DNA of 64,000 bases from Porphyridium purpureum. Its lineage: Eukaryota > Rhodophyta > Bangiophyceae > Porphyridiales > Porphyridiaceae. The DNA lies in assembly GCA_008690995.1 (NCBI GenBank), contig VRMN01000020.1, forward strand, positions 62,001 to 126,000. The letters are read 5' to 3'. Made by a program: the position numbers and the translations under genes. Under the pieces are notes generated by a model. It was not told where the DNA came from. It did not search any database and was given only the letters and a program-made list of their open reading frames with translations. This document shows, one piece after another, positions 6,967-47,270 of the stretch (the first letter of the stretch is position 1; every line of letters begins with the position of its first letter).

Positions 6967-7038
6967 CTCAGCGGCTTTGGGCGGACGCGCGGGCGGACGC
7001 CGCGGGGGCCGCGGGAGCAGCGAGAGGCGGACAGCGCA

Positions 7039-12738: not shown

Positions 12739-12801
<63 letters not shown>

Positions 12802-19854: not shown

Positions 19855-20194
19855 GACTGACGCCGCAGACACATGCCGAGCTGTCTAGACGACGCTACGC
19901 ATCTAGGCCGGGGAAGATCAATCAGCCAATCACCCTCGCTCTGTGGTAGCCGCGCTCTCGTGCTGTGCATCGTGTCGCGTCATAGTTCGACGTCTGGCAC
20001 AGCGGCTGAAATGCAAGGCACACATGCGATGTCTGTGCGGGGCTTCTCAGCTGCTGCGTTGCGGAAGCCGCGCGTGTGCAACTGGGCAACATGAGTGCTT
20101 ATTCGTCGAGAGCAACGCACCTCGCGCGAGGAAACGCGACGATGTGCCTACTCGGCAGCTGGCCACACGACAGCAATGCGGTATTTATTTGCTA
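19855..20194. other. Short spacer between PPR-like paralogues 3 and 4
   Basis: About 340 bases, the smallest gap in the cluster, containing the start region of paralogue 3 and the 3' flank of paralogue 4. Nothing else was seen. Confidence 0.5.
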
Positions 20195-23104: not shown

Positions 23105-23783
23105 CGCGAGAACCCGCTCTCACCGCGCGCGCGCGCGCGTAGACCTCCGCGACTCCGCCTTCCTGCTCGCGTCGCGCGTCTCGCCGAGTTTTCTGTGCTT
23201 GGCGCCGCGCCCGGCATTTTGTGGTGACGGCGGCAGGCGCAACCGACATGCGGCGGCGCGGCAGTGACTTTGTGACTCGGAGGGAGCTTTCCAGGCTACC
23301 TGGCAGGCACGCGCGCGCACGCATGCTTATGACTTGCTGGCCGTCATGGCGCTCAACAAACGTTTGAAGTATTCAGATCTGCGCGTTCGGACGGCTGCCG
23401 GTCTGCGGGGGAAGGGGCCCGTCGCGGCGTGCGAGTGACAATTTCTGGGATAAGCGAGCTAGGTGATGCGCACTTTGCCTCACGAATAGAGCATTTGACT
23501 CCACGATATGCGGCTTGCAAAGCCGCTTAGAGTGGAGCACCTTAGTCGTCTTTCCTGCTACGAGGAGGCTCGATCAGTGCCACCTTCGTCCTGTTCGTGA
23601 ATAATTTGAAGCGGGCCAGGAACGACCATTTTGCGACAGCGCCACTGGACTCTTCTTGTAGACGGCCCAGTTCAGCGATTGCAGCAAACAGTCCATGCGT
23701 TGCTTCATGTACGCCTACCTTGGATTCTTTTGCACGGCTTGAGCGAGTTGGAAACTGCTCTGCTTGACTACAATGCCACTGCT
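23105..23783. other. Spacer between PPR-like paralogues 4 and 5
   Basis: Holds the likely 5' region of paralogue 4, including an alternating GC run near 23122-23141, and the 3' side of paralogue 5. A strong hairpin, GCGGCTT and AAGCCGC around a 3-base loop, is nested between CTCCAC and GTGGAG near 23499-23537. No tRNA T-loop accompanies it. The C-terminal half expected of paralogue 5 is not present in any minus frame. Confidence 0.45.
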
Positions 23784-25259
23784 CTAAAGCTCTTCATCCC
23801 TCTCAAGCCAGCTTTCTCGAGAAAGTGGACCATGGGCAGCCCTTTCGGCATGAACTCCGGCCACTCCTTTGTCTTGCTCCGCATCGTCACGACGCAGTTC
23901 AAGCAAAAATTTCAAAAACATGGTCGAGCGCGAGTCGGTCAACTTCCAGCGAGCGGCGACACGTTTTGCGCATCTTCGAGCTTCTTGCGCGTCCAGCCGG
24001 CCTCTTGAGGCACACTCACCCAGCGTGCGCAGGTACGCGTGCAGGACCCGAAGCTGCTCGCGGAAGTCTGAGCCCAAGTATTTGGCCTCAGTCAGCACAT
24101 CGGATAGTGGGAGCAGCTCATGCGCTTGCGCGCGTCGAATGCAGTCAGGCATATACTGGTACATGCGTCGCTCGTGCAGCGTATAGCCCAGTGCCATGAT
24201 CCAGCGCATGTACTCTCGCGCCTCCTCGTAGTGTCCCGCATTGATAAACGCCGTACTTAGAACGTGAAGCACAGCGCTAGGTGGCTTGAGACCCAATTCG
24301 CGATACTTGTAGCCTATCCACCTTGCGTGGTCCGCCTTGTCGTCACCAGTTGCACAGATCCACGCTCCACACTCAAGGAGGCTGGCGTCCAGTGGCACCG
24401 CTAACGTATCCGGCCCGTTCCGGACAGTTTGCCAAACGGTCAGAGCTGCATCGGGTCGGCGATTCCGCAGCAAACCGTACGCAACGCTGCATATCAGATC
24501 CGCAGTGGGGGTAGGATAGACATGCAAGCGCTCACGGAATGTCCGTTGCATCAATTTGACCCGGCCACACACGCTCAAGTGAGTGATGAGCCCGCTGTAC
24601 GCCTTCTCATTCAGCGTATGATTCTGTGCTTCGACAAGGTTTTTCACTGCAATCACCACATTCACCTTGTAGAGCGCTTTGGCAAGTGGAAGCAGCTGCA
24701 GGAGCGCGAACGAATCCAGCCGCGCACCGTCATCTCGCGCTCGTGCGACCATACGAATCGCAAAGGCTAGCCGTTCGCGAGGCTCCGCGTGTAGCGCGTG
24801 TCTAGCATTGCGCAGAGCAAAGTCGAGCGTCCAATGGTCAAATACTGCCGACCGAGCTGCATCCACGATGCCTTTTACGCGCTGCAAAGTGGCCTCCTCA
24901 ACCAGCGCCAAGTTGAGCTGATCATTCAGCGCTCGAGTTTCTGGCTTTCTTTTCGCGCGCGCGCGAGGCGAAAATGGTGCGGCATCCGTTGGTGGCGAGT
25001 CGAACAATGCGCGAGGCGGATACAGGTCTGGTTGCTCTGAGAGCGAAGCCGCGCGAATGGCTCGCGGCTCCTGTAAATGAAATTGCCGCCGGCACATATT
25101 AGACAGCAGAGCCCTGCGCGGACTCACGTACCGGTCTTGCCAAGCTGACAATAGCGACGCTAACGATGAATGCTGGTGCGCATGGGCACCGCGATTCCAC
25201 AGCAGATGCTTCAGACCCAGTCGCATCGGCCAACGCGGCCACAGCGGGCTGCCAGCCAT
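23784..25259 (-). CDS. PPR-like organelle protein, tandem paralogue 5, C-terminally short
   Basis: A 491-residue family member. The N terminus is rich in arginine, leucine and tryptophan and acid-free for over 40 residues, fitting an organelle presequence. The LAKALYKVNVVIAVKNLV block lies near residue 191, then the unit GLKPPSAVLHVLSTAFINAG with EEAREYMRW, then the ARWKLTDSRSTMFLKFLLEL segment. The other four continue here into an ASRxxxLDxALRLA block and about 200 more residues; this one changes to an unrelated, charged 40-residue tail and stops. It is the farthest upstream copy in transcriptional order. The frame is open back to a GTG at 25361, but 25259 is the first ATG and gives the family's usual spacing. 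Confidence 0.7.
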   Translation of the reverse strand: MAGSPLWPRWPMRLGLKHLLWNRGAHAHQHSSLASLLSAWQDRYVSPRRALLSNMCRRQFHLQEPRAIRAASLSEQPDLYPPRALFDSPPTDAAPFSPRARAKRKPETRALNDQLNLALVEEATLQRVKGIVDAARSAVFDHWTLDFALRNARHALHAEPRERLAFAIRMVARARDDGARLDSFALLQLLPLAKALYKVNVVIAVKNLVEAQNHTLNEKAYSGLITHLSVCGRVKLMQRTFRERLHVYPTPTADLICSVAYGLLRNRRPDAALTVWQTVRNGPDTLAVPLDASLLECGAWICATGDDKADHARWIGYKYRELGLKPPSAVLHVLSTAFINAGHYEEAREYMRWIMALGYTLHERRMYQYMPDCIRRAQAHELLPLSDVLTEAKYLGSDFREQLRVLHAYLRTLGECASRGRLDAQEARRCAKRVAARWKLTDSRSTMFLKFLLELRRDDAEQDKGVAGVHAERAAHGPLSRESWLERDEEL

Positions 25260-26205
25260 ACTGCGCGCGAACCTCCAAGCGCCGGATCTTTTCGCACTGA
25301 ATGCGGGCGAAACGTGCGTCGGCGCGCTGAATGCCGCAGCAATGGCGGCCTGTGCGGTCACCAGCGCCTTCCAATGCAGCCCGCCAAACGCACGCGTCCC
25401 CGCTCGTGCCTGCTTTTCACATTCGAGTCACTTGGACCGGTTAACGGTTTACTTTCTTGCAATCGAAGCGCGTCCGGTTTATGTCCCCACCAGCGGGAGT
25501 CCCTGCTGCGAAAAGAAGAGTTTGGCTCGGACTTGGGGCGGCTGTCGCTCTTCTCGTATCTATGTGGCTCTCCGACGGACAAGATGAAGCTTTACTGTTT
25601 CCTAATGAACTCGGAAATAAATTCTCCACCGAGTCGCGGTCTCTCGTCTGCTGGACCGGCGCGGAGCCGGCCGGTCTTCTATATCGTTCGATCTGGGGAT
25701 CTCGCTGCGGTACAGCTGTGCGTACCTGACCACAGCGACACTTCCGTAAGACCAACTTCACATGCTCTGGTTGAGCATCAGAGTCACAGAAAATTTGAAA
25801 AGAATGTCGCGCTGCTTCTCTCCACATCACGTACCGCCTGCGCGTTTAAAGTCCGTTATTGCAGGTTGAGCGCTTCTAGCAGAAGCTCCTACGACTCTTT
25901 TGCGCCTTCCACTACGATGAATGTTGCGGTACCCCCAAAAAGAACAAGGAAACAAACGCCCGGTAAGTAGTCCCACCCGTGCGCGAACGTGCCTGCGTGG
26001 AAAGAACAATGCGTTACTTTGGCCACGGAGGGGAAATGTTACCAATGCTGTGCCTTTATTCTCTCTCTTTCTTCTTCTTACCTCCGAGCAAGACCTGACC
26101 GGCTAGTCCGGGCAGGCGCGTCGCCTTTTTATACCCTTACTTCCGCTAGGGACAGCAAGGCGGCAAGAGAAATGACAATGCAAACCATTGGCATTTCTGC
26201 GCGCG

Positions 26206-27296: not shown

Positions 27297-28790
27297 TTAA
27301 TTGAGCCATCCGCCTGGAGGAGGAGGAGGAGGCGGCGGCGATGGACGAGGCGACCGCGGCACAGACGAGGCGTGCATTGCTGCGCTGCCGCCCAACGCGT
27401 TCGCGTCAGCCGCTGAGTCCTTGGGTATGTCAGACCAGGATACTTCCGTTCCCGACCGTGTTTTAAAGGAAGTCGACTTGACTTGCCCGTGCTCGGCGGG
27501 ATGAGCCATCACACGGATGGGGTCGTAATCTTGCTGCGACGCCAGGCTGGGTGTCGTTGAGCTCGCATCGTCTGCATCTGGCAGTTCGACATAGTCGAGG
27601 TCCAACAGCCCAGTGCCTCGCTTCTGCAATCCATTGCGGGGCGTGGTGCGGCTCTTGGCCCATTCTGGCTCTGTTGCTTCGTGGCACACGCAGTGGCACA
27701 GGTCATCATCACACGTTCCGCACAAACAAGACACATCAATGTCTCTCAGCGTCAGGCGGCTCGCCGTGGTGAAAGCCTCGCGGCTTCGACCAAACAGAAT
27801 TTCGAGTACATCACCGAAATAGTCGCTAAACCAAACGGCCACTTTGCCAGTACGGCTGTCTTCCTTGCGCTCTTGCAGGCGCCGCACGAGCTGCACCGTG
27901 TGGTGCATGTACAGGAGCGTGGCGAACAAGAAAAGGACTCCAGCGGTGACGGCAGTCAAGATGAACGACCAGCTGTAGTTCACCACCAACAAGCCGTCGC
28001 GCCACGGAATCACCAGAGGGTTCTTGATTCGGCTCACCACTGAAACATAAATGATGACTGCGCTTGCCATCAACCCTGCCACGACCATCAGCAGCAACGC
28101 ACCGACGCGCGGCCGGAACGCGCCAAACAGCACGGACACAAAGTACACGCCGAGGCCCGTGTACAATAAGATATGGGTATAGTACCCGGCGTATCGATAA
28201 TAACGCAGCCAGCGGATTTGCTCGCCGTCGAGCAAGAAGTATTCAGCGATCTGCAGAAGGGGCAGCGGCATTCCGTTAAATTGCGCCTGCCGCCATCGGC
28301 GCGCAACGGTGTTGGCAAGCACTGAAAAGCCTCCACGGCCTTGGAACCAAACATCGCCGCGGCCCCAGAGAAACTGTTCGTTGTAGTTGATGCGCTGTCC
28401 GAACTGGTACTCTGGCTCGCCTAACATGGTCACATTAAAGCCGCGCAGCCCAATCTTGATACCGAGCGTCACGTCCACTTCGTGCGCGTCGTACGCGGCG
28501 TAGGGCGTCCGCGTGTGCACCTCGCCGTATTGCCAGTTGTACGAGAAATTGCTGAGCAGCAGCGTGAACATGACGTACACGCCAAACAGCAGCATGAATG
28601 TCTTGCGCGCAGCGTCGGCTTTGGATTCAAACGAAAAGATGGTGAACAGGCCTGCCACCGCAATGGTCGCGCTCGCGACGCTCACGCTGATGATCCACAA
28701 ATCCAGGCCCACGGCGGTCTTGTTGGGTCCATAGTACGTAGGCCCAATGCCATTCCCAGGCAGCGTCTGCGGCACGCACGTGTCCGCCAT
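27297..28790 (-). CDS. DUOXA: DUOXA, dual oxidase maturation factor
   Basis: A 497-residue membrane protein of the DUOXA family, which lets dual oxidases leave the ER, stays with them and sets their activity at the cell surface. Five membrane segments lie near residues 31-52, 63-83, 203-222, 227-251 and 268-296. Between TM2 and TM3 is the family's large external loop with the diagnostic series IKIGLRGFNVT (N119 is a glycosylation site at the same place as in animals), INYNEQFLW, PLPLLQIAEYF and YRYAGYY. The cytoplasmic tail (about 300 to 497) is longer than in animals, with a cysteine cluster (CLCGTC, CHCVC) near 360 and a poly-proline end. It sits head-to-head with the DUOX gene, 1.66 kb apart, as DUOXA and DUOX do in vertebrates. 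Start is a clear ATG. Confidence 0.93.
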   Translation of the reverse strand: MADTCVPQTLPGNGIGPTYYGPNKTAVGLDLWIISVSVASATIAVAGLFTIFSFESKADAARKTFMLLFGVYVMFTLLLSNFSYNWQYGEVHTRTPYAAYDAHEVDVTLGIKIGLRGFNVTMLGEPEYQFGQRINYNEQFLWGRGDVWFQGRGGFSVLANTVARRWRQAQFNGMPLPLLQIAEYFLLDGEQIRWLRYYRYAGYYTHILLYTGLGVYFVSVLFGAFRPRVGALLLMVVAGLMASAVIIYVSVVSRIKNPLVIPWRDGLLVVNYSWSFILTAVTAGVLFLFATLLYMHHTVQLVRRLQERKEDSRTGKVAVWFSDYFGDVLEILFGRSREAFTTASRLTLRDIDVSCLCGTCDDDLCHCVCHEATEPEWAKSRTTPRNGLQKRGTGLLDLDYVELPDADDASSTTPSLASQQDYDPIRVMAHPAEHGQVKSTSFKTRSGTEVSWSDIPKDSAADANALGGSAAMHASSVPRSPRPSPPPPPPPPGGWLN

Positions 28791-30448
28791 CTTGTGTTCA
28801 CCGCCGGCGCGCAGCAGCTCTGCACGCCGATGGCCACGACCTTGGCTTGCCTAACTTTGCACGACACAAGCGCAGATGTGAGAGGCGAGTACAAGCGTGA
28901 GGCGCGTATAAGTCTAGCTCGGCGGCACCGAATGCACGTCAAGGCGCATCGTCGGTCAGTTTGCAGGGACAGAGTTTTCTTTCCCCCGAGAAATGGTTTT
29001 TCGCCGCTCCTCCAAACGCAATTCGGTGTCACGGCACATCCGCGCACCAGCCCACCACCGACCCATTTAGCCGTTGTGACAATCCCTTGCGCGGGTTGCC
29101 GCTGCCGCGTTTTCCTATGCACGCGCCTCCAACCGCGACGTGGGCAACATTCCGTTAATTCTCCATACGCGCGCTCGCGCCGTGTGCGCAAGCGACCCCT
29201 CACTTGCGCAGATCGAGGGCGTGTGTGCGACGCGCGCCAATGCCGATGACCCCGCAGCGGCTCGCCCACTGCCTGCTTTGTGCGCACGCTGGGTCATCAT
29301 CGTCGCCGCAGAACAAGCGGCTGTAGCCGCCGAATTCACAATTCTGCGCGTTGACGCGACGATTTTCGCCACGTGGAGTAATTCTCCGAATCTGTGCGCG
29401 GCGACGAAGCAGAAGAGAATATCTGCCGCAGAGTCGCACGTGCGGCTCGCGCCATTCCGTTACGAGCTTGACAACTCGCGCACGCAGAAGTGGCCGACGT
29501 GGCCACGCTGACTCAGCCACTTGGCGCGAGCAACGGGGGGGCATGGATGCATTGGAAGCAGAGTTGGCCATAGTGAGTTGCTTTGCGAAAGTCGACGTGT
29601 GCTGCCTAGGCAAGAAAGGGTCGTGCGGGCTAGGATACACGTGTGCGAAACGGAAGGAAGCGTGCGTTGCACGTGCTCGTTTGCTGTGTTGCGTCGTGTA
29701 AATCCACGAAATGAGAACGGCTTTTGATGCGACGAAAATCAAATCGATCCACTAGCAGATTGTCGCGGGCGAGCAGGAATTTTTTTTTTCCTCCCTTTCC
29801 TCTTTCTTTTCTTTCCCCGATGCGCGTCGCTCTGGTTCGTTAATTCTCTGTCGGATTCTGTCGGCGATTTGTGCGCAACGGGACCACGCCGCGCGCAAGG
29901 CCGTTTGGCGGGGTTCTGGTTAGAGGCGCATCTTGTCAAAATATCGTTTGTGATGTTGGCAGTATGTCCTGAGGGGACGGCATCTGTGTCGCACTATTTT
30001 GTGCCCGCCACATGAATTGCATGTGAAGCTTGCAAGTGACAGGGCTGACCCAGCCCGTAATTTGCGTGACATGCGAGTCACGATCGACGATGCAAAGTCG
30101 GCCCTCCTCATTTCCGGGACCTCGTTTTCCTTTTTCTTTTTCTTTAGAATGCTTGCAAAATCGCACGGCAGACGGGCATCAGCCTTGCATATAATGGGCG
30201 AATAGCGAGTGCTGTCAACTCGACGAGGACTTGTGCGTCGTCTCCTGTGCCACAGAGCGGCTTCTCGGAAGATCCAAAGCTCAAACACTTTCAAGAGGGT
30301 GGCCATTTCGAGGACAGGACCGAGGCGATCCAGGTCGCAAGGTAAGAGCTGCCTTTCCCTCTCGTGCATTCTTCGCAAGCCGCATTCGCAGCGCGAGAGG
30401 GGGCGCACGCTTGTCAAGCAGGAAGGCTGACACTTTCGCGCCCCTCTC
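28791..30448. promoter_or_regulatory. Bidirectional DUOXA/DUOX intergenic region
   Basis: This 1.66 kb region lies between the two divergent start codons and must hold both promoters. No long coding frame, GTAC array or obvious TATA box next to either ATG was seen. Polypyrimidine/T-rich stretches lie at about 29786-29818 and 30127-30146. Whether one shared element drives both genes cannot be decided by eye. Confidence 0.6.
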
Positions 30449-33400
30449 ATGGAAGCGTTTTATCGCATCTCGCTGCCTCGCGCGCCCAGCACGCGCAATG
30501 GACAGCTCGTCGATATCGACCCTGAGGGCGTGTATCGCGACGAGTTGTTTGAGGAGGCTCAGCGCATGAATGATGCGGAACAGGGCGTGCTTCGATCGGT
30601 GCTGGCCCAGCAGCGCATCAAAAAGCGCTTCTCAGCGGGCGCCATCTTTGGTCTTTCGTTGATGCTGCTTGTCTCGATGCTTCTTCCGATGCTTCTGGTG
30701 CATAGCTCCATGTCTCGGGTGCGAGCGCGAGTTAGCTCGCTGCCAGTCTTCACCAAAGCAAACACTTCGCGCCGCTTTACAGGTGTGCTACGTCAAGAGG
30801 CAGCGGTAGACATCGAGTGGACACCGTGGGACGGCGCGTTTAATAACATTGCCCACCCTGAATATGGCGTTGTGGAGGGCCGAATCACACGCCCATGCTT
30901 GCCACGTTATGCGGACGGAGCGTATGCGCCCTCCAATCCTGAAGGTCCCAACCCGCGCACCGTGTCAGAGCTCGTCATGGGCGGCGACACTGGGTACGGC
31001 TCGCTCACCAATAAGACCGCCTTTCTTGTCTTTTTTGGGCAGCAGGTCGTCGAGGAAATTCTCGATGGGCAGGCCTTCCAACCGGCCGAGCCGTATGTCA
31101 ACATTCCCGTGCCTCAATGCGATCCGCTGTACGATCCAGACTGCAAGGGCGACTTGTTCATTCCTTTACCGCGCAATCGATACGACCTCAGCACAGGCAA
31201 TGCACCTGGCGTTCCGCGCGCTCAGCTCAACGAAATCAGCGCGTGGATCGATGGCACGCTTTTCTACGGCCCTTTCAAGGCGTGGGCAGACACGCTACGT
31301 GCGTACGACGAGGAGCGACCAGGACGATTTGCGTGTCTGGTTGACGAAGAAAGTGGCGTGGAAAACTGCAACCTTCCTGCACTCAACACAATTGGATTGC
31401 CAATTGTGAACCCTCCTCCTCCAACCCTTCGTGACGTGAGGCCGGCCGAACGCTTTTTCCGCCTGGGCAACCCGCGCACCAACGAAAATCCCATGCTGCT
31501 GGCGTTTGCGGTGATGTGGTTCAGGTACCACAATGTCGTGGCCGATCGCATTCATGCCAAGCATCCAGACTATGACGATGAGGAAGTGTTTCTGTTTGCG
31601 CGACAGTGGCTGATCGCAATCTACCAAAAGATTGTGTTCTATGACTGGTTACCGAGCTTCTTGGGCATCCCGCGCGAAGAGTTTGACGAAAAGTATGCAT
31701 ACAAGGGCTATCGCACGGTCGACCCGGCCATTTCGCAAGAATTTCAGGTCGCGGCCATGCGCTTTGGACACACGCTCGTGACGCCAGGTGCATATCGTCG
31801 CGAGCCATACTCATGTACCCCGAGCTCCTTCGAAGCGCTTCGCACCTGCAACTCTTACTTTCGCGGCGAGGAAGTGCTGCTCGAAGACGACGGCCCCACG
31901 AAGATGCTGCTGGGTCTGGCTTCACAGCTGGCCGAGCGTGAAGACGCGACAATCACGCCGGACTTGCGCGGCTTTGTTTTTGGCGTCTCACTGGACGCGA
32001 CACGACGCGATCTCATGGCAATTAACATCCAGCGGGCGCGCGAGCACGGCGTCGGGACGTACAACCAGGTGCGCAAGTGCTTCAGGCTTCCGGAAGTGTC
32101 ATCGTTTGACGAGATTTCGTCACTCACGGACAACCCGGCGTTCAATAACTGCACTGACGCACAGGGCAACACGGGCGTCAATTGCATGCAGATTGCCATC
32201 GAGGGCTTGAAGCTGGCGTACGACAACGATATTTCCAAGTGTGACTTGTGGCCCTGCGGGCTGCTGGAGGTGAATGTGACCGGACCAGGCCCTCTGTTTC
32301 AAGCCATCCTGATTGACCAGTTTTTGCGCATCCGCGACGGCGATCGGTTCTGGTTTGAGAATGACAATGGGCCCATCGCAAATATTCTGTCCGCGGAGCA
32401 GATCGATGAGATATGGAACACGACCATTCGAGATGTCATGGTGGACGCTCTGGAGCTTAGCGACGATGTTATTTTGCAGAGCAATCCGTTCAAATATGAC
32501 CCATCTGTCTGCGCACAGCCCGTGCAGCTGAGCGAGTTCAATCTTGAAAATTGCTCCGCACCTTCAACGTACAACTGGTACCGAGGACACATTCCTCAGC
32601 GTGAGCCCTCGGTGACGACCACGACCTCGCAACGAAGCGTGTGTGAAGCAGACTCGTTGGCAAAAATCCTTTTCGGGTCCAAGGATGGACACGAGCACGA
32701 TGATCGTCTACAGCAAGAGCTTTCCACGGAGGAGCAGGCAGCGGCAGCAGGTTGCCCGGTGTACAAGGCACGCACAAAGCTCGCGCGTATAATGATCATG
32801 CAGCAGGTGATGATGGAGCGTGTGAAGAAGGGCATCTCCCAGCGCTACGTTAGCTACCTGGGCTCCAACGACTGTGGTATCACAAATGGTGACTCGCTCG
32901 TGCAACTCGCGTGGACCATCGCTGGTATTGTGATGTGGCTCACCGCGAATGTGATAGTGATGTATTTCCTCGTCCGCTGGATCAAGCAGCGAAAGGGACT
33001 TCGGCAGTTCGGCCGCAAAGCTCCGAAAAATGGACCCTTCATTCCGCCCGATTTCAAGCCGACGCGAAGCGGCACCGGTGTCCACATGTACAAGCACAAC
33101 TCAAAGACCACGGGATACGGATGTCTCATCTATCACTCTTTTCGGCACGAGTCGTCTGATGTGAAGGGTGCTACCGTGAAATTGTGCGAGCCAGAGCAAG
33201 CGCATTTCTTCTTAGTAGGAGTGGGAGATTCCGTCCAAGATGGAGACGCCAGAGGCATTGCACGCGAGGGAGACGGCCATGAGTCGCGTATTGATAGAAG
33301 CCGCGCTACCGATTCAGCCCGGCCGATGGAAGTGCGAGAGGTTCTAAGTGGTGATATTACCATGATTTCACCTTCGAACGTATCCGAAGTGCGTATCTTT

Positions 33401-36400
33401 GACAAATACCTGATGGTGGTGTGCAAAATTGGGTCGGCGCGGCTCTTCGAGTTTGATTCACCGACCAAAGCGAGACTTGTGCTTCGAGAGCTGCAGGAGA
33501 GTCTGAGTAGGACGATCGGGAACGGCATCGAGGTGAACGCGGCGAGCGTGAACGAGCTTGCCGAGGGTTGTACGTCGAGGGCCGAACGCATGGAGGAGAT
33601 CGAGCAGTTTTTTGAGGAGGTCAAACTCGACTTCAAGAAAAAGTACAGTGCGTCTGCCACACATACGTCCTTCGCAGCAGCTGCCACTGCACTTTCCAAA
33701 TGGGACATGACAGGCGACACCCTTTTGGGAGACGATATGAAACTGGTCCATGAGACCGTGCAAAAGGTCACTGCCTATAATTTATCAGGAGTCGCATGGA
33801 CCATCCACCAAAACGAGACTGATGAAGCGGGAGCAGAACTGGGCAACGGTATTGCGGCCAAGCAGTCAGCTACAAGGACGACGACGCAAGCAAGCGCATC
33901 GCATCGTAACACCAGCAAGCGTCCGCTGGGCAGAAGTCTCTCCAAACTTGCTCTTCGCAAGACAAAAGGTAGTCTTGCTGCAGGTTCAACGCAAACCTCT
34001 CACGGTTTGTGGCGGGGGGCAGGAGTGAGACCGGAGGACGTTGAGGATACGGTGCTCTTCACGAAGCACGAGGTTGCTGCGGTTTTGCACATTCACCCTT
34101 CTTCCTTTATTCTCTCACGCATGTTTTATGAAGGCATGGGTAAGCGTAGCTCCGTGATTACCGCGCGTCAGTTTCGTCGAGCCGTAGAAAATTTGCTGAA
34201 AGCCGGCGAGTCGCCGGGCCTTTTCCTCGCTGGTCTTGCGGTCGGTGAAGGGCAGAGTATTGACAAGAGACTGCTGCTAGATATTGTGTACGAGTTGAAA
34301 GGTGGCACTGGGATGGATGACGTTGATCTTGACCGTGGCGACGCGCAAGTGATGGCAAAGTACATGAATGCAACCAGCTCGGCGACGCTCTCTGTGGAAG
34401 AATTTGGGAACATGATCGTTGAAATGCAGGAGAAGACGATGAAGCAGCGCAATGTTGGATGGCAGCAGTATTTGAGGCAGATCAAACAAGACGCAGAAGA
34501 AAGTGCTAACGAGCGGACGGCTCCGACGGGAAGGAAGTTTGAGAAATTGCGCTCATGGCAGCACTCGTTTGTCGACTACTGTAAGGCACACCGTTTCGAG
34601 ATTTTCTGGGGCGTCGCATACGGCCTCACAATTGCGCTGATCTTTTTGTACACGTGGTGGTACTACTACTCTCTTCGTGAGGTATACGGCTTGCGCGGTA
34701 TTTTGACGGTGGGGCTGTGCGTGACGCGCGCTTCTGCCAGTGTCGACATGTTCGTGTACTCGATCACTTTGCTTCCGATGTGCCGTAATCTGATCACCTT
34801 CTTGAGGAGCACAAAACTGCACCGATACGTGCCGTTTGATCGTGCGTATGAGTTTCACGTCGTCACGGCAGTCACGGGTGAATTCTTCACGGCGTTGCAT
34901 GTTGTCGGCCACTGCGTAAATTTCTATAACATCACGACGCAGCGCAGTGGCGACCTCACGGGCTACTTTCGCGCGGTGAACTGGAACTCGGACTTTGTGC
35001 CTTCCTTTGCGTTCTGGGTGTTTGAAACAATCACTGGCATGACGGGCTTTTTGTTGACATTCGTCATCATCACTTTGATGGTGTTTGCCATTCGGCAGGT
35101 GCGCGCCGCCAGCTTCCAACTGTTTTGGGTGATGCACCACGTGTGCTTCATGCTGCTGTACACGATGATTGTTCTGCATGGCTCCTTTGTGCTCGTGCAG
35201 CGGCCAATCTTCCACTACTTTTTACTTGGCCCACTGCTCTTGTTCATTCTCGACAAGCTGTATTCATTCGCGCGTGAGTCTGAGCGACTGCAAATTATTG
35301 AGATGCGCTTGCTTCCGAAGGGCGTCACTGCATTGTATGTTCGCGTATCGCCCAGCTTTTCTTACAGCTCGGGCCAATGGGCGCGCTTGAAGATTCCGGC
35401 ACTGGGCACGTCGGAGCTCCATCCTATCACGATTTCGTCAGCGCCACATGATCCGTACGTGTCGTTCCACATCCTGGCGTGTGGGCCTTGGACGCAAGCG
35501 CTGCGCGACCTGGCGTTCGAAATGCAGGGCAAACCAGTGTCGTCATTACCCACGATCCGCATCGATGGCCCGTACGGCGAGGGCCACCAAGACTGGATGC
35601 TTTATGAAACGGTGCTGCTGGTGGGATCAGGGATCGGTTGTACACCTTTTGTGTCGGTTCTGAAGGATATCTTGCATCAAGTGCGCAGCAAGACGTTCCG
35701 CACGACAAAAGTGGTCGCGGTCTTTATTTCCAGAGGCATTCGAGATCTGGCATGGATCACCAATGAACTGAGTCAGCTCGAACCGTATGCGCCGCCCGGT
35801 TTCCTCGAACTCCTGTTTTTCGACACGGAACAAAAGGTGGACAAGAAAACAAGCACGCTCGATGCGCGCCATTTGGCTTTTGACCAGGCAATTCTGCGCC
35901 ATGTGGAGTACGTTTCGCAGATCTTGGCGGGCCGTTCGTCTCTCATTCGCGTCAGGGGATTCGTGTTGCAAGGCCGCCCGAATTTTGACACGCTTTTGAA
36001 AGATGTGCAAGCCGATTGTATGGCGCACGGCGCTTTGAGCGCTGAAACTTATTCCGAACTCCAGGTCGGCGTGTTTGCTTGTGCGTCGGCCCCGGTCACG
36101 CTCAGTCTTAAGAAAGCGTGCATCAAACGTGACCGCGACACTATGAGAGAGATTGCATCCAGACAAGCGGAACTGGGGAAGAAAGAATTTGAGTCTCGCG
36201 AAGTCTCTTCAGCGGATCAAGACGCATCGCAAGATGGACGTGGCTTGAACGGAGAGGCGGCGCAGGGGGGGAACCGCACGCCGGAAAGAGACACATCTAG
36301 CTCAAGTAGGCTGACGGCCACCTTGCGCGAAGAAAACGTGCTGTCAGAGTCGCTGCGCGAGTCGAAAATGCCATCGGTTGACATGAATAAGATCAAGAAC

Positions 36401-36640
36401 TTTGCTACGTCGTTCAAGCCGAGCGCAAGGCAACGCGCGCGAGTCGAGCGGCCGGTGTTTTTCACATTTTATGGACAAGTGTTCAGCTCGGACACGTCGT
36501 TTGACTTTTGGTCGAAATGGAAGACAAAGTTGGGCAAGCGGAAGCAGCAGCAAGCAGTGCAAGAGGCATTCGAGGCGTTGCCCAAGGTCGCCGCGCATGC
36601 GATGGGTGGTGATGATGCCGTCGGCGCGTCGCAGGTGTAA
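30449..36640 (+). CDS. DUOX: DUOX, dual oxidase (peroxidase-like plus NADPH oxidase)
   Basis: A 2063-residue dual oxidase, against about 1550 in humans. Domains in order: cytosolic N terminus; signal-anchor TM (about 64-85); animal-type peroxidase homology domain (about 110-690) with FFGQQ (195-199), RYHN, WLPSFLG and RFGHT (His441, proximal-heme position); TM (about 818-842); PH-like domain (about 869-1020); an insertion of roughly 150-200 residues; an EF-hand-derived region (about 1215-1330) lacking acidic loop ligands; six-helix ferric reductase domain with heme histidines H1470/H1484 and H1564/H1577 (spacings 14 and 13, as in NOX2); FAD motif HPITISSAPH from 1658; NADPH motif GSGIGCTPF near 1727; a C-terminal extension of about 150-200 residues after the end of human DUOX. 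It should move electrons from cytosolic NADPH to external oxygen. The distal peroxidase histidine is missing, so peroxidase activity is doubtful. No intron is needed. Confidence 0.95.
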   Translation: MEAFYRISLPRAPSTRNGQLVDIDPEGVYRDELFEEAQRMNDAEQGVLRSVLAQQRIKKRFSAGAIFGLSLMLLVSMLLPMLLVHSSMSRVRARVSSLPVFTKANTSRRFTGVLRQEAAVDIEWTPWDGAFNNIAHPEYGVVEGRITRPCLPRYADGAYAPSNPEGPNPRTVSELVMGGDTGYGSLTNKTAFLVFFGQQVVEEILDGQAFQPAEPYVNIPVPQCDPLYDPDCKGDLFIPLPRNRYDLSTGNAPGVPRAQLNEISAWIDGTLFYGPFKAWADTLRAYDEERPGRFACLVDEESGVENCNLPALNTIGLPIVNPPPPTLRDVRPAERFFRLGNPRTNENPMLLAFAVMWFRYHNVVADRIHAKHPDYDDEEVFLFARQWLIAIYQKIVFYDWLPSFLGIPREEFDEKYAYKGYRTVDPAISQEFQVAAMRFGHTLVTPGAYRREPYSCTPSSFEALRTCNSYFRGEEVLLEDDGPTKMLLGLASQLAEREDATITPDLRGFVFGVSLDATRRDLMAINIQRAREHGVGTYNQVRKCFRLPEVSSFDEISSLTDNPAFNNCTDAQGNTGVNCMQIAIEGLKLAYDNDISKCDLWPCGLLEVNVTGPGPLFQAILIDQFLRIRDGDRFWFENDNGPIANILSAEQIDEIWNTTIRDVMVDALELSDDVILQSNPFKYDPSVCAQPVQLSEFNLENCSAPSTYNWYRGHIPQREPSVTTTTSQRSVCEADSLAKILFGSKDGHEHDDRLQQELSTEEQAAAAGCPVYKARTKLARIMIMQQVMMERVKKGISQRYVSYLGSNDCGITNGDSLVQLAWTIAGIVMWLTANVIVMYFLVRWIKQRKGLRQFGRKAPKNGPFIPPDFKPTRSGTGVHMYKHNSKTTGYGCLIYHSFRHESSDVKGATVKLCEPEQAHFFLVGVGDSVQDGDARGIAREGDGHESRIDRSRATDSARPMEVREVLSGDITMISPSNVSEVRIFDKYLMVVCKIGSARLFEFDSPTKARLVLRELQESLSRTIGNGIEVNAASVNELAEGCTSRAERMEEIEQFFEEVKLDFKKKYSASATHTSFAAAATALSKWDMTGDTLLGDDMKLVHETVQKVTAYNLSGVAWTIHQNETDEAGAELGNGIAAKQSATRTTTQASASHRNTSKRPLGRSLSKLALRKTKGSLAAGSTQTSHGLWRGAGVRPEDVEDTVLFTKHEVAAVLHIHPSSFILSRMFYEGMGKRSSVITARQFRRAVENLLKAGESPGLFLAGLAVGEGQSIDKRLLLDIVYELKGGTGMDDVDLDRGDAQVMAKYMNATSSATLSVEEFGNMIVEMQEKTMKQRNVGWQQYLRQIKQDAEESANERTAPTGRKFEKLRSWQHSFVDYCKAHRFEIFWGVAYGLTIALIFLYTWWYYYSLREVYGLRGILTVGLCVTRASASVDMFVYSITLLPMCRNLITFLRSTKLHRYVPFDRAYEFHVVTAVTGEFFTALHVVGHCVNFYNITTQRSGDLTGYFRAVNWNSDFVPSFAFWVFETITGMTGFLLTFVIITLMVFAIRQVRAASFQLFWVMHHVCFMLLYTMIVLHGSFVLVQRPIFHYFLLGPLLLFILDKLYSFARESERLQIIEMRLLPKGVTALYVRVSPSFSYSSGQWARLKIPALGTSELHPITISSAPHDPYVSFHILACGPWTQALRDLAFEMQGKPVSSLPTIRIDGPYGEGHQDWMLYETVLLVGSGIGCTPFVSVLKDILHQVRSKTFRTTKVVAVFISRGIRDLAWITNELSQLEPYAPPGFLELLFFDTEQKVDKKTSTLDARHLAFDQAILRHVEYVSQILAGRSSLIRVRGFVLQGRPNFDTLLKDVQADCMAHGALSAETYSELQVGVFACASAPVTLSLKKACIKRDRDTMREIASRQAELGKKEFESREVSSADQDASQDGRGLNGEAAQGGNRTPERDTSSSSRLTATLREENVLSESLRESKMPSVDMNKIKNFATSFKPSARQRARVERPVFFTFYGQVFSSDTSFDFWSKWKTKLGKRKQQQAVQEAFEALPKVAAHAMGGDDAVGASQV

Positions 36641-37289: not shown

Positions 37290-37844
37290 CTAGAACGCAA
37301 AAGTACCTTGGAGCAAGCGGTGGGGAATGATAAGCGCATTGGCATCGAGCCAGGTGTCCAGCAGTGAGAGACCGAAAAGCTTTCGCGAAAAGCGCTCGAT
37401 GATCAGAAGCGCGTGGCCGAGACCCGGAGCGACCCATCGAGTGTAGCATGATGCTTTGACGCCATCCACGACGATGTCACCGTGCATAGTGTGCGGATTA
37501 TATAAACCCTTTGCGCGAACGCTTCGCCGCACTGAAAGGACACTGCCATTTTCACCGATTCCCGTGATCATGATGTCGCCAGGTTGAATGGTCCCAGCAA
37601 CAACCAGGTTACCGTTCGCGTAGACAAGATGCCCACTTGTGACAGTCAACATGTCATGCTCAAGCTGGATTTGGACGAAATCATCATGGACACTTTCCGC
37701 ATCATGGTGGCCCCAGAATACCACTGGGCTAAATGCATCAGACGACACGCGCACTATATCACCTACTTTCAGTGTATCCATTCGCTTCAACGAGCCATCC
37801 TCCATCCCGACCAGTCCGCTAGCTGGGAAGCAAGTCCCAGAGAC

Positions 37845-37895
<51 letters not shown>

Positions 37896-38921
37896 TTGAA
37901 TTTGCATACCGGGCTGATAGCCATCGGTGCAATTTTCAAAGCTGGGCCTCTGCATCACACAGCCAAGCCAACTCGTCATGGCCGAGAGGCGCGTATACAC
38001 GGCAGCTGGGTATTCAGGGTCTGCACAGCCCGTTCCAAAGGAGACAATTCCGATTTGAAGACGGCCTACGGAGCTCTCTCCCGTGTCGTCGCCGAGAATG
38101 AGTGGACCACCGCTATCGCCCTGGCAAGTATCTGCAGGAGGCTCGGGCTCGTATCCAGCACAGAGCATGCTCGTTGCTTTGAACGAGGAGCCGTACAGGC
38201 TACGGCACAGACTATCCGGCTCTACGAATATATCTTCTTCCAGAAGAATGTTTGAACCGTCGCCGCCAAAAAAGAGGTCCCCGAAGCCAATGATGGTCGA
38301 CCTCTCGCCCTCGAGGTCCACGCCGTTTGACGATGTATCCAAACCAAAAATCCGCGCGTATGTAGAAATTGTCACGTCTTCGCTCAACTCAATCAGAGCG
38401 GCGTCCCATTCAAAGGAGAATTCATCCCACTTGGGGTGTCTGTACACGTTGACGGCACGCGCGTTAAGGCCTGTGGTGGATTTGACTGAGTCATACAATC
38501 CAACAACCGCGGACGGTACAAAAATGTCCTCCAGAAAGCAGTGCGCAGCAGTCAAGATCCAGCGCGAGCCGACGATCGTGCCGCCGCAGCTGTACTGTTC
38601 ATTGAGGTCGGCATACGAGATCAACACTTGCGCAAACCACGGATACTCCCCTTGATCCGCGGGCTTTCCATTCACAATACGCTGCAGGCCGTGCGCGACT
38701 TTCAACCGCCGCGTACTGGGCTCTGACGCGCGGTCGCTCCATCTCGGCTCCTTCACTGCCGGGGTACCGGCGCGCTTCCCTTCTACCCGCTGAAGCATCG
38801 TCGCGCCACCTCGAGACGCACAGTCAAGTCCAACAAGCATCAAAACCACTATGCTTAAAGCATACGCGCCGCCCATTCCACGTCTCGTACTTCGACCCAT
38901 CGTTCGCTGAGTACTAAGCAT
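37290..38921 (-). CDS. Secreted trypsin-like protease fused to Hedgehog-type Hint domain
   Basis: A 543-residue protein. A signal peptide lies at about 17-36 (hydrophobic SIVVLMLVGL core). The S1 peptidase domain starts at IVNG (82) and has the full triad, H127 in TAAHC, D173 in WDAAL and S270 in GDSGG, with D264 in the specificity pocket, so it should cut after Lys/Arg. A linker of 12 aspartates and 5 glycines (343-359) leads to a Hint domain beginning at C364 in GTCFPASG. The Hint part has the DTLKVGD motif, a TVTSGH motif (the TxxH of Hedgehog autoprocessing) and the late signature VVDGVKASCY characteristic of Hedgehog C-terminal domains, then 50 more residues where Hedgehog proteins have the sterol-recognition region. 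Self-cleavage at C364 would release the protease. Starts at 38921 or 38900 (both ATG) are possible; an open frame reaches a GTG at 39149. Confidence 0.9.
37845..37894 (-). repeat. ACC/ATC triplet repeat encoding the Gly5-Asp12 linker
   Basis: Five ACC and twelve ATC triplets on the plus strand, read as glycine and aspartate codons on the minus strand, between the protease and Hint domains. Its purity suggests length variation between strains. Confidence 0.9.
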
Positions 38922-41900
38922 CTGCCCTGAGGAACAAGGCAAGCACGCATGACAAATCTTGTCACGCAGCACACTGACAGTCGCTTCTCTTCCTCCTGCT
39001 GGTCTGACTCGAACGCTTCGTTCCTTCTGCGTATCACACTGTTCCACCATCACCAGGCCCGGTATCCCCCGATACGTATACCCAACAACCGGCGCCAAAG
39101 CCACCACGCCGCTCACAAAAAACACCGGCGTGACGCTGCAAAAAATCACAATTCAGAGCACCCGCGCAACATCCCCTGCGAAAGAGAAATTCAAGCACCG
39201 ATGCGAGAGACATGAGCTCACTCAGGCCGAAAGCAAAAAGAATTCATTTATGCGTGACTCAAGTTGCGAGCCAACGGCGCCGACTCGCAGCCTTCAGTGG
39301 TACAGACCAGGGATTGACTACTCACGAACTCCATGCGCTAGAACATTGCGCGAGACGAGCTGTGCACCGTGTCTCGTAAAGTATGAAAAAATCGCGCCGC
39401 TGCTGCTTCACGTAAAGATGCATGTGGCCGAACAGATATGCACAAGACGATGAAGGCTGGACGCTGTTGAGCGTCCGAAGCTGTGGCCGCGCGTGGCGAG
39501 CAAATCAGATGATACCTGGTTGAGAGAGTATCGCTTTATGCGAAATGAATACTAACCGTCAGATGATTTAGCGCGATGTCGAAAAATTATCGGTCCCAGT
39601 CGAAAGTCGCAGAACTTTTTCTGACCCGATTGATTCCACTGCGATCGAAAAAGATCGTTAAGCGTGACTCATAGGCGGGCGCCGCTGTCCAGGAGTGTGC
39701 AAAGTTCAACGCAGCTTTCGTCAACCTTTCAGCCCACGTGCAGAGCCGGGAACCGCGTGCGTCAAAGCTTCTCATGTGCCCAGGCCCCATCAACGCCTGC
39801 ATTGCCGCGAATTCAGTACCGTTGGCGGCATGCTCGCTTCTGTTCGCCTGGAGAAGCAGTGCTCAGCCTCAGGGGCGCCCACATCAGTGCTAGCCACAGT
39901 TTATACTTCAAAGTCGCTTTCCGCCAGCCGAGGAAAAGGTACTCGTCGCAAATAAGCCCGGTCTCTCACCAGCACGTGCATGATGGAACAGAGGGTCTCG
40001 GGTAAGGGACATGTAGATCGCGAAGACAGACGCATTTGCAGCGTGCCATTTGACCATCTTGCTGTTCTAGCTCTTGTGGAAATCTCGCATGTGCCCGAGA
40101 AGATTGGGCTTTCACTGGTCACGCTCTGGGCGAGAGAGGCAGGTCTCGGGTTCACCGCACGCCCGCGCGCGCATCTCCCTGCGCTCTTGCCGCGGAAAGA
40201 AAGGGCGCGATTCAGTGTACTATGCGCGTCCTGGTGGCGGTATTGTTCGGTCTGAGCTCGCTTCGGGACGAGGTTCTTCTGGGGTTGAACGCGACGCCAT
40301 GGCGTCTTGCTGGTCCGACCGGCACGAAACGGCCCAAGGTATTGCTCCGAGCCAACTGGAAATAGTTCTCACCCAGGATCGGGTGTGCAGGAGCAAGTGG
40401 GTTTGGATCCCGAGCAGGCGCCTGCGCTTCCGATGTCCGTTCCGCCCGGTGTCGAGGAGCAGCTGGCGCGCAGGGGGGCTTGGGTAGGAGGCGCTTGCAC
40501 ATGTGCGCGGACCGCACGGCACGCGAAGAATGGAACCCACGATCAGAAGGCTGTACGATTCAAATGCGCTTATGGGCTAAGTGTATGCCCGCGCGCATAC
40601 GTGTCCTTGTGGTAGTCTGGGAAAGGAGGAAACCTATGTGTGGCAGATTCCCAAGCTTGTGGAACCGTAGGTACTTGCATCAGCGGCTGAACTGCTCACT
40701 ACGCAGAGTATCGGTGAGAAAGTTTCTCGCGAGTGCGACAGCAAACCGTATCAGCTGGCTTTCACGGCTGAAGCGCGCTCCTCACCTGCGTTCATGTTAT
40801 ATTATGTCCCGGTCGGGCATAATCCGGACATGTTTGAAACTTTTCTTCTTGAGACGTGCGATTGTGGCAATATGTTCGTGGTCGATAAAGGCGCCGTGAC
40901 ACACCTGGCGTGAAAAACGCCGTTTTCGTCGCGCGACTCCATCGCAACTCATCCGGAGCGGTGGGCGCGGGATGCGGGCAAAATGCCTTATCTGTTCAGA
41001 AACGAGGCAGAGCTCAAAGGGATGGATGCTGGGCGTTGGAAGATTGAGAAGGCGCCGCGTTATTTGTTGCTCACCGAACGTAAGCTGTCCTAGCATCCAC
41101 TAGCTCGGAAAATCGTGACGGCGGGTTCCAACGCAAACTTGGCGTATGTCATCCAGATTGTGCTCGGGTATGCTCTCACGCACCTGGAGGAATGTGAGTT
41201 GAGGTCTGATCAGACAGTAGCCATCGTGTACCATTCAGTTTCAACCCAAGTTTGAGTGGCATGAAAGCTCGCCGATGCAGGACGGCGCCGGAAGGGTCCC
41301 ACGCATGGTGATGTGGAAATGGGCTGCAAAGCGCGCGACCCCTTCAGAGGCGGTCATTCTTGATTTTTTTGGGCATTGCGTGGGATGCTGTGCCACTGGC
41401 GAAGCTCTTGCACACTGCTTTGTTCCGATGCAATGCATTGACCAAAGCCATGCAACGTTTCTCTTCATGGGTCGTGGGTGCGGAATACATGTATTGAGTG
41501 TAAAGGTGTGTCGATGATGCAGCTCGTCAACGCGATCATCGTCATCGATGCGCAGCGATCTCCATGTATCCATGGATTCATGTGAATCGGCGCACATGCG
41601 CAATCCAACCGTGGAGCACTTTGTGTGGTTGTTCACGTTTGCTCACTTGCTGTTATGTTTGCCACTGTCCGACGAACAATGCATCTACCGTGGACAGAGA
41701 AGGGATTTTACTTCCCTGAGTAGGATTGACTCCAAATCAAAAGCGTGGCCTTGCGATGCTGAAGTCTCGTGAAATCGTTCACCGTGCGCAACGCGCGTAG
41801 ATGGAATATGTTTTCTACTTGGAAGTATAAAACCGATTCATAGTTCAATCATCTTTCATCAAGCTTTGGAGAAATAATCGTTGTCCAGCTGAGCATGACT

Positions 41901-46031: not shown

Positions 46032-47270
46032 ATGATGGGTACGCTGCCACTCCAAATCATTTTGATTGGAGTGACCGGCGTAGGGAAAAGCACTCTTGCG
46101 AACACGATTGCGACTGGATTATCAAATGTTGATCCGGACGAGAGAGATAGACTGACCCAGATTTTCGCTGTCTGCAATGGCGCAGAGTCGTGTACGACCG
46201 CGACAAAGCGTGAAATAGTCAAACATAAAAGCCGAGAGCTCTCCATTGTCGATACGCCCGGGTTCATGGACACCTCGGGAAGCGACACAGGAATCATGCA
46301 GGCTTTTCGTGCATTTCTGAACAACAACCAGAACGCCAGTGGTGTGTTGCTGGTACTCAACGCAACAGATTGTCGAATTACTGAGGTCCATCAAGCGATG
46401 TTTAGGACAGTTGGTGAAGTGTTTGGCAAGGAAGTTGGTCGGATTTTCGGAGTAGCCTTTACGCACATGTCGCAAAACGCAAAGGAAAAAAGGAAGCGTG
46501 AAGTCAAGGGCCAATCTGAGAAGTCGATGATTGCATCTTGGACATCTGCGCTGAAGAGCAGAGATATACTTTGCCCCGCAAATGACAAGTGGTTCTTTTT
46601 GGATGCAGAGTTTGCACATGATGATAAAGACGAGGTGGTCTTTGCCCAAAAGGAACGCCAAAGACTGCTGGACTGGGCCCTTTCGAATCCTGTGGTGAAG
46701 ACTGAGATGCGTCTCGAACTTGAGCAGAAACAGCAGGAATACCTTCACCTCGCTAGGCAGACCGGTGATATTAAGGATGCGATGCTCAAGCTCTCGAAAG
46801 ACATCTTTGCACGACTGAAAGAACTCGTTGGTGTCGACAGGAGGTGGAGGCGACCACAAGGGAAAGAATATTTTGAGTTTCAGCCCAACAAGGGTGGAAA
46901 TGCGATTATTGGGATACTAACCCTCGGCATGGAAGTCCAAGTTGACCGTTTCCGACTTTATTTCGAGGCGACTGACGGTGATGGGGACAATGCTGACGAC
47001 GACTTGGTGGATCACTTTTTGACCATGACCACTGAACTTACGCTGCGCCAGATTGAGGCTATTATGAACAGGAAAAAAGTGGGGCTGCGCGACTTTCGCA
47101 CATCAAGTTTGGTCAAGTATGGCGCCGTGCACAGGAATAATATCCTCAACATTACGCTTGTTTTGTGCGGAACGGGAGGTTTTGAAGCACTCGCCAAAGC
47201 TGCGGCTACTGCGGCAGACAGCATCCGAGCCACGAAGATGGGGAAGCCGAAAGAGGCATCGTGGAAGTGA
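46032..47270 (+). CDS. AIG1/GIMAP-like GTPase
   Basis: A 412-residue protein with an N-terminal AIG1-type GTPase domain (about 6-240). The P-loop GVTGVGKST (13-21) is intact, the switch II DTPGFMDTSG is present, and LVLNATDCRIT and GVAFTHMSQNAKEKRK occupy the family's later positions, the last being the base-recognition region where AIG1 proteins have FTHxD. A helical region (about 235-300) and an unassigned C-terminal domain follow; there is no membrane anchor and no kinase. The GTPase part resembles that of the divergent neighbour at 42117-44924 in length, motif order and the DTPGF/GSDTG-like context, so the two are probably paralogues. This one keeps the P-loop lysine that its neighbour lacks. 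AIG1/GIMAP proteins form GTP-dependent membrane scaffolds in animals and plants; the algal role is unknown. Confidence 0.88.
   Translation: MMGTLPLQIILIGVTGVGKSTLANTIATGLSNVDPDERDRLTQIFAVCNGAESCTTATKREIVKHKSRELSIVDTPGFMDTSGSDTGIMQAFRAFLNNNQNASGVLLVLNATDCRITEVHQAMFRTVGEVFGKEVGRIFGVAFTHMSQNAKEKRKREVKGQSEKSMIASWTSALKSRDILCPANDKWFFLDAEFAHDDKDEVVFAQKERQRLLDWALSNPVVKTEMRLELEQKQQEYLHLARQTGDIKDAMLKLSKDIFARLKELVGVDRRWRRPQGKEYFEFQPNKGGNAIIGILTLGMEVQVDRFRLYFEATDGDGDNADDDLVDHFLTMTTELTLRQIEAIMNRKKVGLRDFRTSSLVKYGAVHRNNILNITLVLCGTGGFEALAKAAATAADSIRATKMGKPKEASWK

What the first reader, a model, noticed from the sequence alone, without database searches (positions are those of the whole stretch)
27297..36640. 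Head-to-head DUOXA and DUOX genes in a putative alga
Both partners of the animal dual-oxidase system are present and divergently transcribed, 1.66 kb apart. The human DUOX1/DUOXA1 and DUOX2/DUOXA2 pairs have the same head-to-head layout. DUOXA carries the family signature loop and the conserved glycosylation site; DUOX has the full peroxidase-like, TM, PH-like, EF-derived, ferric reductase, FAD and NADPH series. The pair is either much older than animals or was transferred and kept linked.
Basis: partly seen in the sequence, partly recalled or inferred. Interest (0 to 1): 0.9.

Follow-up and report, generated by a model that had tools for sequence, protein, structure and literature searches.

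The report
Animal-type DUOX and DUOXA gene pair
A stretch of genome that does not look animal carries, side by side and facing away from each other, both genes of the hydrogen-peroxide-making system (DUOX and its helper DUOXA) that is usually described from animals, which suggests that the pair is older than animals or was passed on as a unit.

Summary
The 497-aa minus-strand ORF is a DuoxA protein (Pfam E = 1.7e-51). The 2,063-aa plus-strand ORF is a DUOX: peroxidase and NOX parts both match DUOX1 best (347 and 318 bits). The genes are divergent, 1,658 bp between start codons. In a small tree the peroxidase part joins mammalian DUOX1 with full support. The NOX part, compared with only two proteins, is nearer DUOX1 than gp91phox. 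I infer a DUOX-DUOXA oxidase complex.

It is a variant. Ca2+-binding EF-hands are not recognisable, although another ORF in the window gives clear EF-hands. Both cysteines of the DUOX1 PHD-TMD disulfide are missing. Unlike in DUOX1, the proximal peroxidase histidine is present; the distal one is glutamate. The protein starts with a likely signal anchor. Four heme histidines, the oxygen-reducing centre, the DUOXA glycosylation site and two PHD dimer arginines are kept.

Not settled: ancient pair or transfer (no other eukaryote could be searched), the host (alga unproven), expression and activity.

The parts
27297..28790 (-). DUOXA-like gene, one uninterrupted ORF, 497 aa
   Evidence: Pfam DuoxA E = 1.7e-51; the two PDB hits at E up to 1 are both DUOXA1
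27894..28736 (-). DuoxA domain (aa 19-299), with the loop that is claudin-like in DUOXA1 and the N119 sequon aligned to N109
   Evidence: human 75-175: 36 of 101 aligned residues identical, rest 35 of 163
27684..27728 (-). Cys cluster in the predicted cytosolic tail (Cys at aa 355, 357, 360, 365, 367, 369), outside the aligned DUOXA1 region
   Evidence: Cys list; alignment
28791..30448 (.). intergenic region between the two start codons (1,658 bp), possible shared promoter region; no promoter shown
30449..36640 (+). DUOX-like gene, one uninterrupted ORF, 2,063 aa
30644..30700 (+). hydrophobic segment aa 66-84 after a 65-aa N-terminal stretch: likely signal anchor
   Evidence: mean hydropathy 2.54; topology inferred
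30815..32581 (+). peroxidase-homology domain (aa 123-711)
   Evidence: 218 of 549 aligned residues identical to human DUOX1 (alignment, counted); tree
32918..32974 (+). transmembrane segment aa 824-842, at the place of M0 of DUOX1
   Evidence: hydropathy; equivalence inferred
32999..34561 (+). cytosolic middle region (aa 851-1371): candidate PH-like plus degenerate EF module; no canonical EF-hand
34601..36136 (+). NOX core (aa 1385-1896): ferric reductase membrane part, FAD and NADPH domains
   Evidence: 182 of 483 aligned residues identical to human DUOX1 (alignment, counted); Pfam
36140..36637 (+). C-terminal stretch (aa 1898-2063) beyond the part aligned to DUOX1

Best explanation
The two genes encode the catalytic subunit (DUOX) and the maturation subunit (DUOXA) of one membrane oxidase. 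Shown by sequence: both are homologues of the animal proteins, and the DUOX keeps the four heme histidines, the oxygen-reducing centre and the FAD and NADPH domains. Inferred: DUOXA co-folds with DUOX in the ER, its N-terminal peptide and claudin-like loop brace the peroxidase-homology domain and the membrane core, and the complex goes to the cell surface. There electrons pass from cytosolic NADPH through FAD and two hemes to oxygen outside, giving superoxide and H2O2. Direct Ca2+ switching through EF-hands is probably weakened or lost. The outer peroxidase domain may still bind heme, because the proximal His, the Arg and the Glu are kept, but it lacks the distal His, so classical peroxidase activity is doubtful. 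Keeping the genes divergent from one region would favour joint expression (inferred).
For: Pfam and PDB matches. Residue mapping to human DUOX1 (numbering and roles from PMC7794343): H1130, H1144, H1225, H1238, R1087 and H1148 kept; CBS1 T332, R395 and D397 kept; CBS2 W172 and D174 kept; PHD dimer R50 and R507 kept, both reported to matter for assembly. DUOXA: Y11, G13 and P14 of the N-terminal peptide, the N109 sequon and INYNE kept. PX tree: this protein with DUOX1 100/100 in 10 rows and again in 7 of them; four rival groupings rejected, p-AU 7.4e-4 or less, the groupings being chosen after the tree was seen. NOX: of 375 columns, 69 shared only by this protein and DUOX1, 44 only by DUOX1 and gp91phox, 28 only by this protein and gp91phox.
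Against: No activity or expression data. DUOXA identity is low (71 of 264). Interface residues are mixed: F10 of DUOXA1 is Thr; K15 is Asn or Lys depending on the alignment; F8 was not aligned; D1077 of DUOX1 is Gly, E41 is His, C118 and C1165 are both lost, F313 could not be aligned. R1062 and R1248, which line the tunnel proposed for superoxide, are Thr and Ile, and R1215, which bonds to the PH-like domain, is Ala. The regulatory region matches nothing by sequence. The structure models are too poor to test the complex (pLDDT 42 and 39).
Confidence: 0.82

Rival explanations
1. Old inheritance: a linked DUOX-DUOXA pair existed before animals and was kept here and in animals but lost in most other lineages.
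For: Deep split: end branch 0.89 for this protein and about 1.0 for the mammals after a shared stem of 1.37, in a tree where peroxinectin A and lactoperoxidase have end branches of 1.04 and 1.15. Codon usage like the neighbours (correlation DUOX 0.935, DUOXA 0.828, against 0.472-0.84 for the 12 other ORFs). [quoted passage not shown] No animal-type EF-hands.
Against: Needs many losses: NOX surveys seen in passages describe DUOX from animals, one 'almost exclusively'. Only mammalian DUOX was available, so there is no root and no rate control.
Confidence: 0.5
2. Transfer: the linked pair moved between an early animal lineage and the ancestor of this organism, in either direction.
For: Patchy known distribution; close linkage makes joint transfer easy; pattern scans found no prokaryotic or viral source.
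Against: Uninterrupted ORFs, host-like codon usage, deep divergence and several non-animal features. All of these could also arise after an old transfer.
Confidence: 0.4
3. Independent fusion: a local NOX joined a local peroxidase and recruited a DUOXA-like protein separately.
For: Other red algae are reported to have NOX enzymes without EF-hands and animal-type heme peroxidases (passages).
Against: The PX half groups with DUOX1 and not with the other peroxidases tried, the NOX half is nearer DUOX1 than gp91phox, and the partner is a DuoxA protein. NoxD, NOX5 and RBOH were not in any tree here.
Confidence: 0.03
4. Contaminating or mis-assembled animal DNA.
For: The pair is best known from animals.
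Against: Uninterrupted ORFs over 7.7 kb, codon usage of the neighbouring ORFs, only 38-40% identity to human DUOX1 and 27% to DUOXA1.
Confidence: 0.02
5. The product is a metal reductase or a structural protein rather than an oxygen reductase.
For: The ferric reductase superfamily includes metal reductases; activity is untested.
Against: The oxygen-centre residues equivalent to R1087 and H1148 are kept.
Confidence: 0.04

Closest known systems
Human and mouse DUOX1-DUOXA1 (PDB 7d3e/7d3f human; 6wxr mouse, recalled)
   Same: Same two subunits, same domain order at both ends of DUOX, heme and oxygen-centre residues, most cation-site residues, PHD dimer arginines R50 and R507, DUOXA glycosylation site; divergent gene layout
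   Different: No recognisable EF-hands, no C118-C1165 pair, proximal His present, likely signal anchor (the human protein is mature from residue 20), C-terminal stretch, Cys-rich DUOXA tail, 1.66 kb gap against 135 bp for DUOXA1-DUOX1 and overlap for DUOX2-DUOXA2 (PMC2871058)
NoxD/Rboh enzymes reported from red algae (Chondrus, Pyropia)
   Same: NOX core without EF-hands
   Different: NoxD is described with four extra membrane helices between the NADPH sub-regions (PMC1940245); no such insert shows in the alignment to DUOX1, and here a peroxidase domain and a DUOXA are present. No NoxD sequence was compared directly
Peroxinectin A of Dictyostelium and bacterial peroxidases of the same superfamily
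   Same: Peroxidase family PF03098
   Different: Distal His present in the 4 non-DUOX rows that cover that site; fall outside the DUOX clade

Membership tests
DUOXA (PF10204) | Significant match to the curated family model over the domain | tested here: met
   E = 1.7e-51, 175.4 bits against cut-off 23.3, model positions 1-266 of 279
DUOXA (PF10204) | Glycosylated Asn in the TM2-TM3 loop (N109 of human DUOXA1) | tested here: met
   N119-V-T aligned; glycosylation itself not testable
DUOXA (PF10204) | Five membrane helices | tested here: inconclusive
   Hydropathy peaks at 33-51, 61-79, 207-249 (three overlapping), 267-299 (two overlapping); consistent with five but not resolved
DUOXA (PF10204) | Brings DUOX out of the ER | not testable with these tools
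   needs co-expression
DUOX | N-terminal peroxidase-homology domain of DUOX descent | tested here: met
   347 bits to DUOX1; clade 100/100 with two mammalian DUOX1 rows
DUOX | NOX core with four heme His, FAD and NADPH domains | tested here: met
DUOX | Two canonical Ca2+-binding EF-hands in the cytosolic loop | tested here: not met
   no Pfam EF-hand with the limit at E = 10 and no PROSITE-like loop; a looser loop pattern fits once in DUOX, at aa 1925, outside this region. Positive control: ORF 6796-7374 found at 2.2e-11
DUOX | PH-like domain after M0 | tested here: inconclusive
   strands then helix in a pLDDT 39 model; 5 of the 50 Foldseek rows printed are FERM domains, none significant
DUOX | Partner DUOXA | tested here: met
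   adjacent divergent gene
DUOX | Ca2+-activated H2O2 production | not testable with these tools
   needs an enzyme assay

The most novel reading that the evidence does not exclude
The DUOX-DUOXA pair, already head to head, existed in a common ancestor of animals and this (putatively red-algal) lineage. The lineage kept a form that is not switched by Ca2+ through EF-hands and still holds heme in its outer peroxidase domain with a distal glutamate, so that the animal EF-hand control and the disulfide between peroxidase and membrane domains are later states, or were lost here.
Probability: 0.3. Interest if true: 0.82.

Novelty: new variant of a known kind. Interest (0 to 1): 0.62.

Why it matters
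DUOX and DUOXA are treated in the surveys seen in passages as an animal or nearly animal-only system. A linked, diverged pair outside the usual setting gives a test of when the pair arose, which features of the complex are basic (heme core, DUOXA loop, PHD dimer arginines) and which may be later (EF-hand control, disulfide, loss of the proximal His). If the host is a unicellular alga, the system also works without epithelia and could supply H2O2 to cell-wall or halogen chemistry (speculation).

Tried and rejected
Relatives elsewhere: the DUOXA scan of viral contigs matched no pattern. The DUOXA alignment scans of genome and viral contigs gave 72 and 109 pattern matches, none confirmed; the NOX alignment scans gave 29 and 42, none confirmed. 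A NOX tblastn of plasmids found nothing. The contig scans use short degenerate patterns and would miss diverged genes, and the genome set is bacterial and archaeal. The PF10204 search of one plasmid record also rang in 0 of 14 control genomes, so it shows nothing.

Structure: single-sequence models of DUOXA and of the middle region were poor. The middle region's ten best Foldseek rows are calmodulin or CIB1 (0 of 296 matches at E <= 0.001; 50 rows printed). As a control the DUOXA model gave 15 matches, none titled as calmodulin or another EF-hand protein. I keep this as a hint only. The second aligner was not available.

Dropped claim: I first read K15 of DUOXA1 and D1077 of DUOX1 as lost together. 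A second alignment puts K24 at K15, so I do not claim it.

Dropped idea: a bidirectional promoter. The promoter scan found 1 site against 0.5 in shuffles and the repeat search only a few short repeats; the scan is for bacterial promoters, so it is no test in a eukaryote.

Papers: in the listings I saw no title or abstract start that reports DUOXA or a DUOX-DUOXA pair in an alga. I saw at most 20 rows of each, not every hit, and only open-licence papers are held. One paper on red-algal Rboh genes (PMC9322803, passages) drew candidates from Porphyridium purpureum among others; the passages do not mention DUOX, and I did not see its gene list, so it may hold a relative under the name Rboh. Automatic database annotation of these two genes may well exist; I could not look.
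Full report
What is there. Two long uninterrupted ORFs sit back to back: 27297-28790 on the minus strand (497 aa) and 30449-36640 on the plus strand (2,063 aa). Both open with ATG, with an in-frame stop 21 and 7 codons upstream, and 1,658 bp separate the start codons. The first matches Pfam DuoxA at 1.7e-51 and the second matches An_peroxidase, Ferric_reduct, FAD_binding_8 and NAD_binding_6 in that order along the protein. Against PDB chains at E up to 1 the first hits two sequences, both DUOXA1. The second hits DUOX1 far above anything else in both halves: 347 bits for the peroxidase part against 193 for the next protein (8s6c, named lactoperoxidase in the PDB; its sequence looks bacterial to me), and 318 bits for the NOX part against 139 for gp91phox, 101 for NOX5 and 93 for the Cylindrospermum enzyme.

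Is it DUOX by descent, or a look-alike fusion? I built a tree of the peroxidase part with 10 rows: this protein, human and mouse DUOX1, 8s6c, Dictyostelium peroxinectin A, a partial lactoperoxidase, and four bacterial plasmid genes (4 of the 12 records with a match). This protein joins DUOX1 with support 100/100. It does so again after three partial rows are left out (7 of 10 rows). Four rival groupings were rejected, with p-AU from 9.7e-78 to 7.4e-4; they were chosen after the tree was seen, and the tool warns that long branches can sway the test. With so few rows this is strong but not final. For the NOX part only three proteins could be compared. In 375 columns shared by all three, this protein agrees with DUOX1 in 151, with gp91phox in 110, and DUOX1 agrees with gp91phox in 126; exclusive matches are 69, 28 and 44. 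NOX5, RBOH and NoxD could not be put into a tree.

Residues. I mapped the residues named in the human DUOX1-DUOXA1 structure paper (PMC7794343; sections 8, 10 and 11 read, other passages) onto this protein. Kept: all four heme histidines, R1087 and H1148 of the oxygen-reducing centre, T332, R395 and D397 of cation site 1, W172 and D174 of site 2 (D109 is Glu; T170 and S176 are Ser and Thr; V399 is Thr), Q1245, and R50 and R507 of the PHD dimer. Changed: C118 to Pro and C1165 to Gly, so both ends of the PHD-TMD disulfide are missing; E41 to His; D1077 to Gly; R1062, R1215 and R1248 to Thr, Ala and Ile. F313 could not be aligned. In DUOXA the Y, G and P of the N-terminal peptide, the N109 sequon and the INYNE motif are kept, and identity is highest in the stretch that holds the extracellular loop (human 75-175: 36 of 101, against 35 of 163 elsewhere). 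That loop makes extensive contacts with DUOX in the structure.

Peroxidase site. Human DUOX1 lacks the heme ligand histidine, and a superfamily review calls the proximal His absent in dual oxidases (PMC4420034, section 7, part 1 of 2 read). This protein has a His at the proximal place (H441, in RFGHTLV, Ser in DUOX1) and the Arg and Glu of the R-x-x-E motif (R343, E346). Its distal His is Glu (E202, Ser in DUOX1) and the neighbouring Asp that binds heme in other members is Val. So it may bind heme, but it is unlikely to be an ordinary peroxidase. That a Glu can act as the distal acid-base residue in other heme enzymes is recalled, not from a call.

Regulation. In human DUOX1 two EF-hands bind Ca2+ and activate the enzyme. 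Here the 521-aa region between the M0-like segment and the NOX core has no Pfam EF-hand with the limit set at E = 10 (HMMER's filters drop most weak matches), no PROSITE-like loop, and no PDB hit to DUOX1. The same library finds EF-hands in another ORF of this window at 2.2e-11, so the method works on this sequence. A poor single-sequence model (pLDDT 39) shows strands then a helix, then helix-short strand-helix units. Its ten best Foldseek rows are calmodulin or CIB1, and 5 of the 50 rows printed are FERM domains, with no match significant; a control model of DUOXA gave no such rows. My reading, at about 0.6, is a degenerate PH-like plus EF module that no longer binds Ca2+ in the canonical way. 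Red-algal Rboh proteins are also reported to lack EF-hands (PMC9322803, passages).

Topology. A strong hydrophobic segment at aa 66-84 follows 65 residues that look mostly polar by eye. I infer an uncleaved signal anchor that puts the peroxidase domain outside. The C-terminus carries 166 residues beyond the aligned part, and the DUOXA tail has a Cys cluster with no counterpart in the aligned DUOXA1 region.

Linkage. In human both DUOX-DUOXA pairs are among the ten most conserved close bidirectional pairs listed (PMC2871058, passages). Random adjacency of these two genes in a genome of several thousand genes would be about one in thousands (my estimate; the gene number is not known), so linkage is probably meaningful. 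The gap of 1.66 kb is much longer than in human, so a compact shared promoter is not shown. Four ORFs in or overlapping the gap have no Pfam match.

Origin. Codon usage of DUOX and DUOXA correlates with that of the 12 other ORFs tested (0.935 and 0.828; the others, each against the rest, 0.472 to 0.84), and the ORFs are uninterrupted, so recent transfer and contamination are unlikely. The split from mammalian DUOX is deep. NOX surveys that I saw in passages describe DUOX from animals (PMC9421330; PMC9524095) or almost only from animals (PMC7730656, which included one red alga, C. merolae). [quoted passage not shown] I could not search other eukaryotes: no genome is held for the window, and prokaryotic and viral scans gave nothing confirmed. 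I put old inheritance at about 0.5 and transfer of the linked pair at about 0.4.

Host. The window is 52-63% GC in 2-kb steps, with long uninterrupted ORFs and a uroporphyrinogen methyltransferase-like ORF whose match begins roughly 55 to 130 residues into the protein, depending on the start codon, and lies under NCBIfam's cut-off. This would fit a unicellular red alga such as Porphyridium (recalled comparison), but nothing here proves it.

Verdict. A real DUOX-DUOXA pair of a diverged kind, in a window that does not look animal.

Noticed in passing
window 37290-39149 (-): Trypsin domain fused to a hedgehog-type Hint module (PF01079, E = 2.5e-23), next to the DUOX gene.
   Followed up: no
window 42117-44924 (-): AIG1-type GTPase domain fused to an alpha-kinase domain; a second AIG1 ORF lies at 46032-47270 (+).
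   Followed up: no
window 52347-55319 (-): Protein kinase with seven Sel1 repeats and a weak MLKL_N match at the N-terminus (E = 0.0027, below the curated cut-off).
   Followed up: no
window 11049-25361 (-): Five long ORFs in a row on the minus strand that look like PPR or TPR repeat proteins by eye; in Pfam two of the five gave only weak TPR matches, one a weak PPR match, one an unrelated low-complexity match and one none, all below cut-off.
   Followed up: partly
window 58712-60292 (+): Three DUF285 stretches, a family named from Mycoplasma, in a eukaryote-like window (E = 3.4e-63).
   Followed up: no
window 27684-27728 (-): Cys-rich stretch in the DUOXA tail (six Cys within 15 residues) that could bind a metal or be acylated; function unknown.
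   Followed up: no
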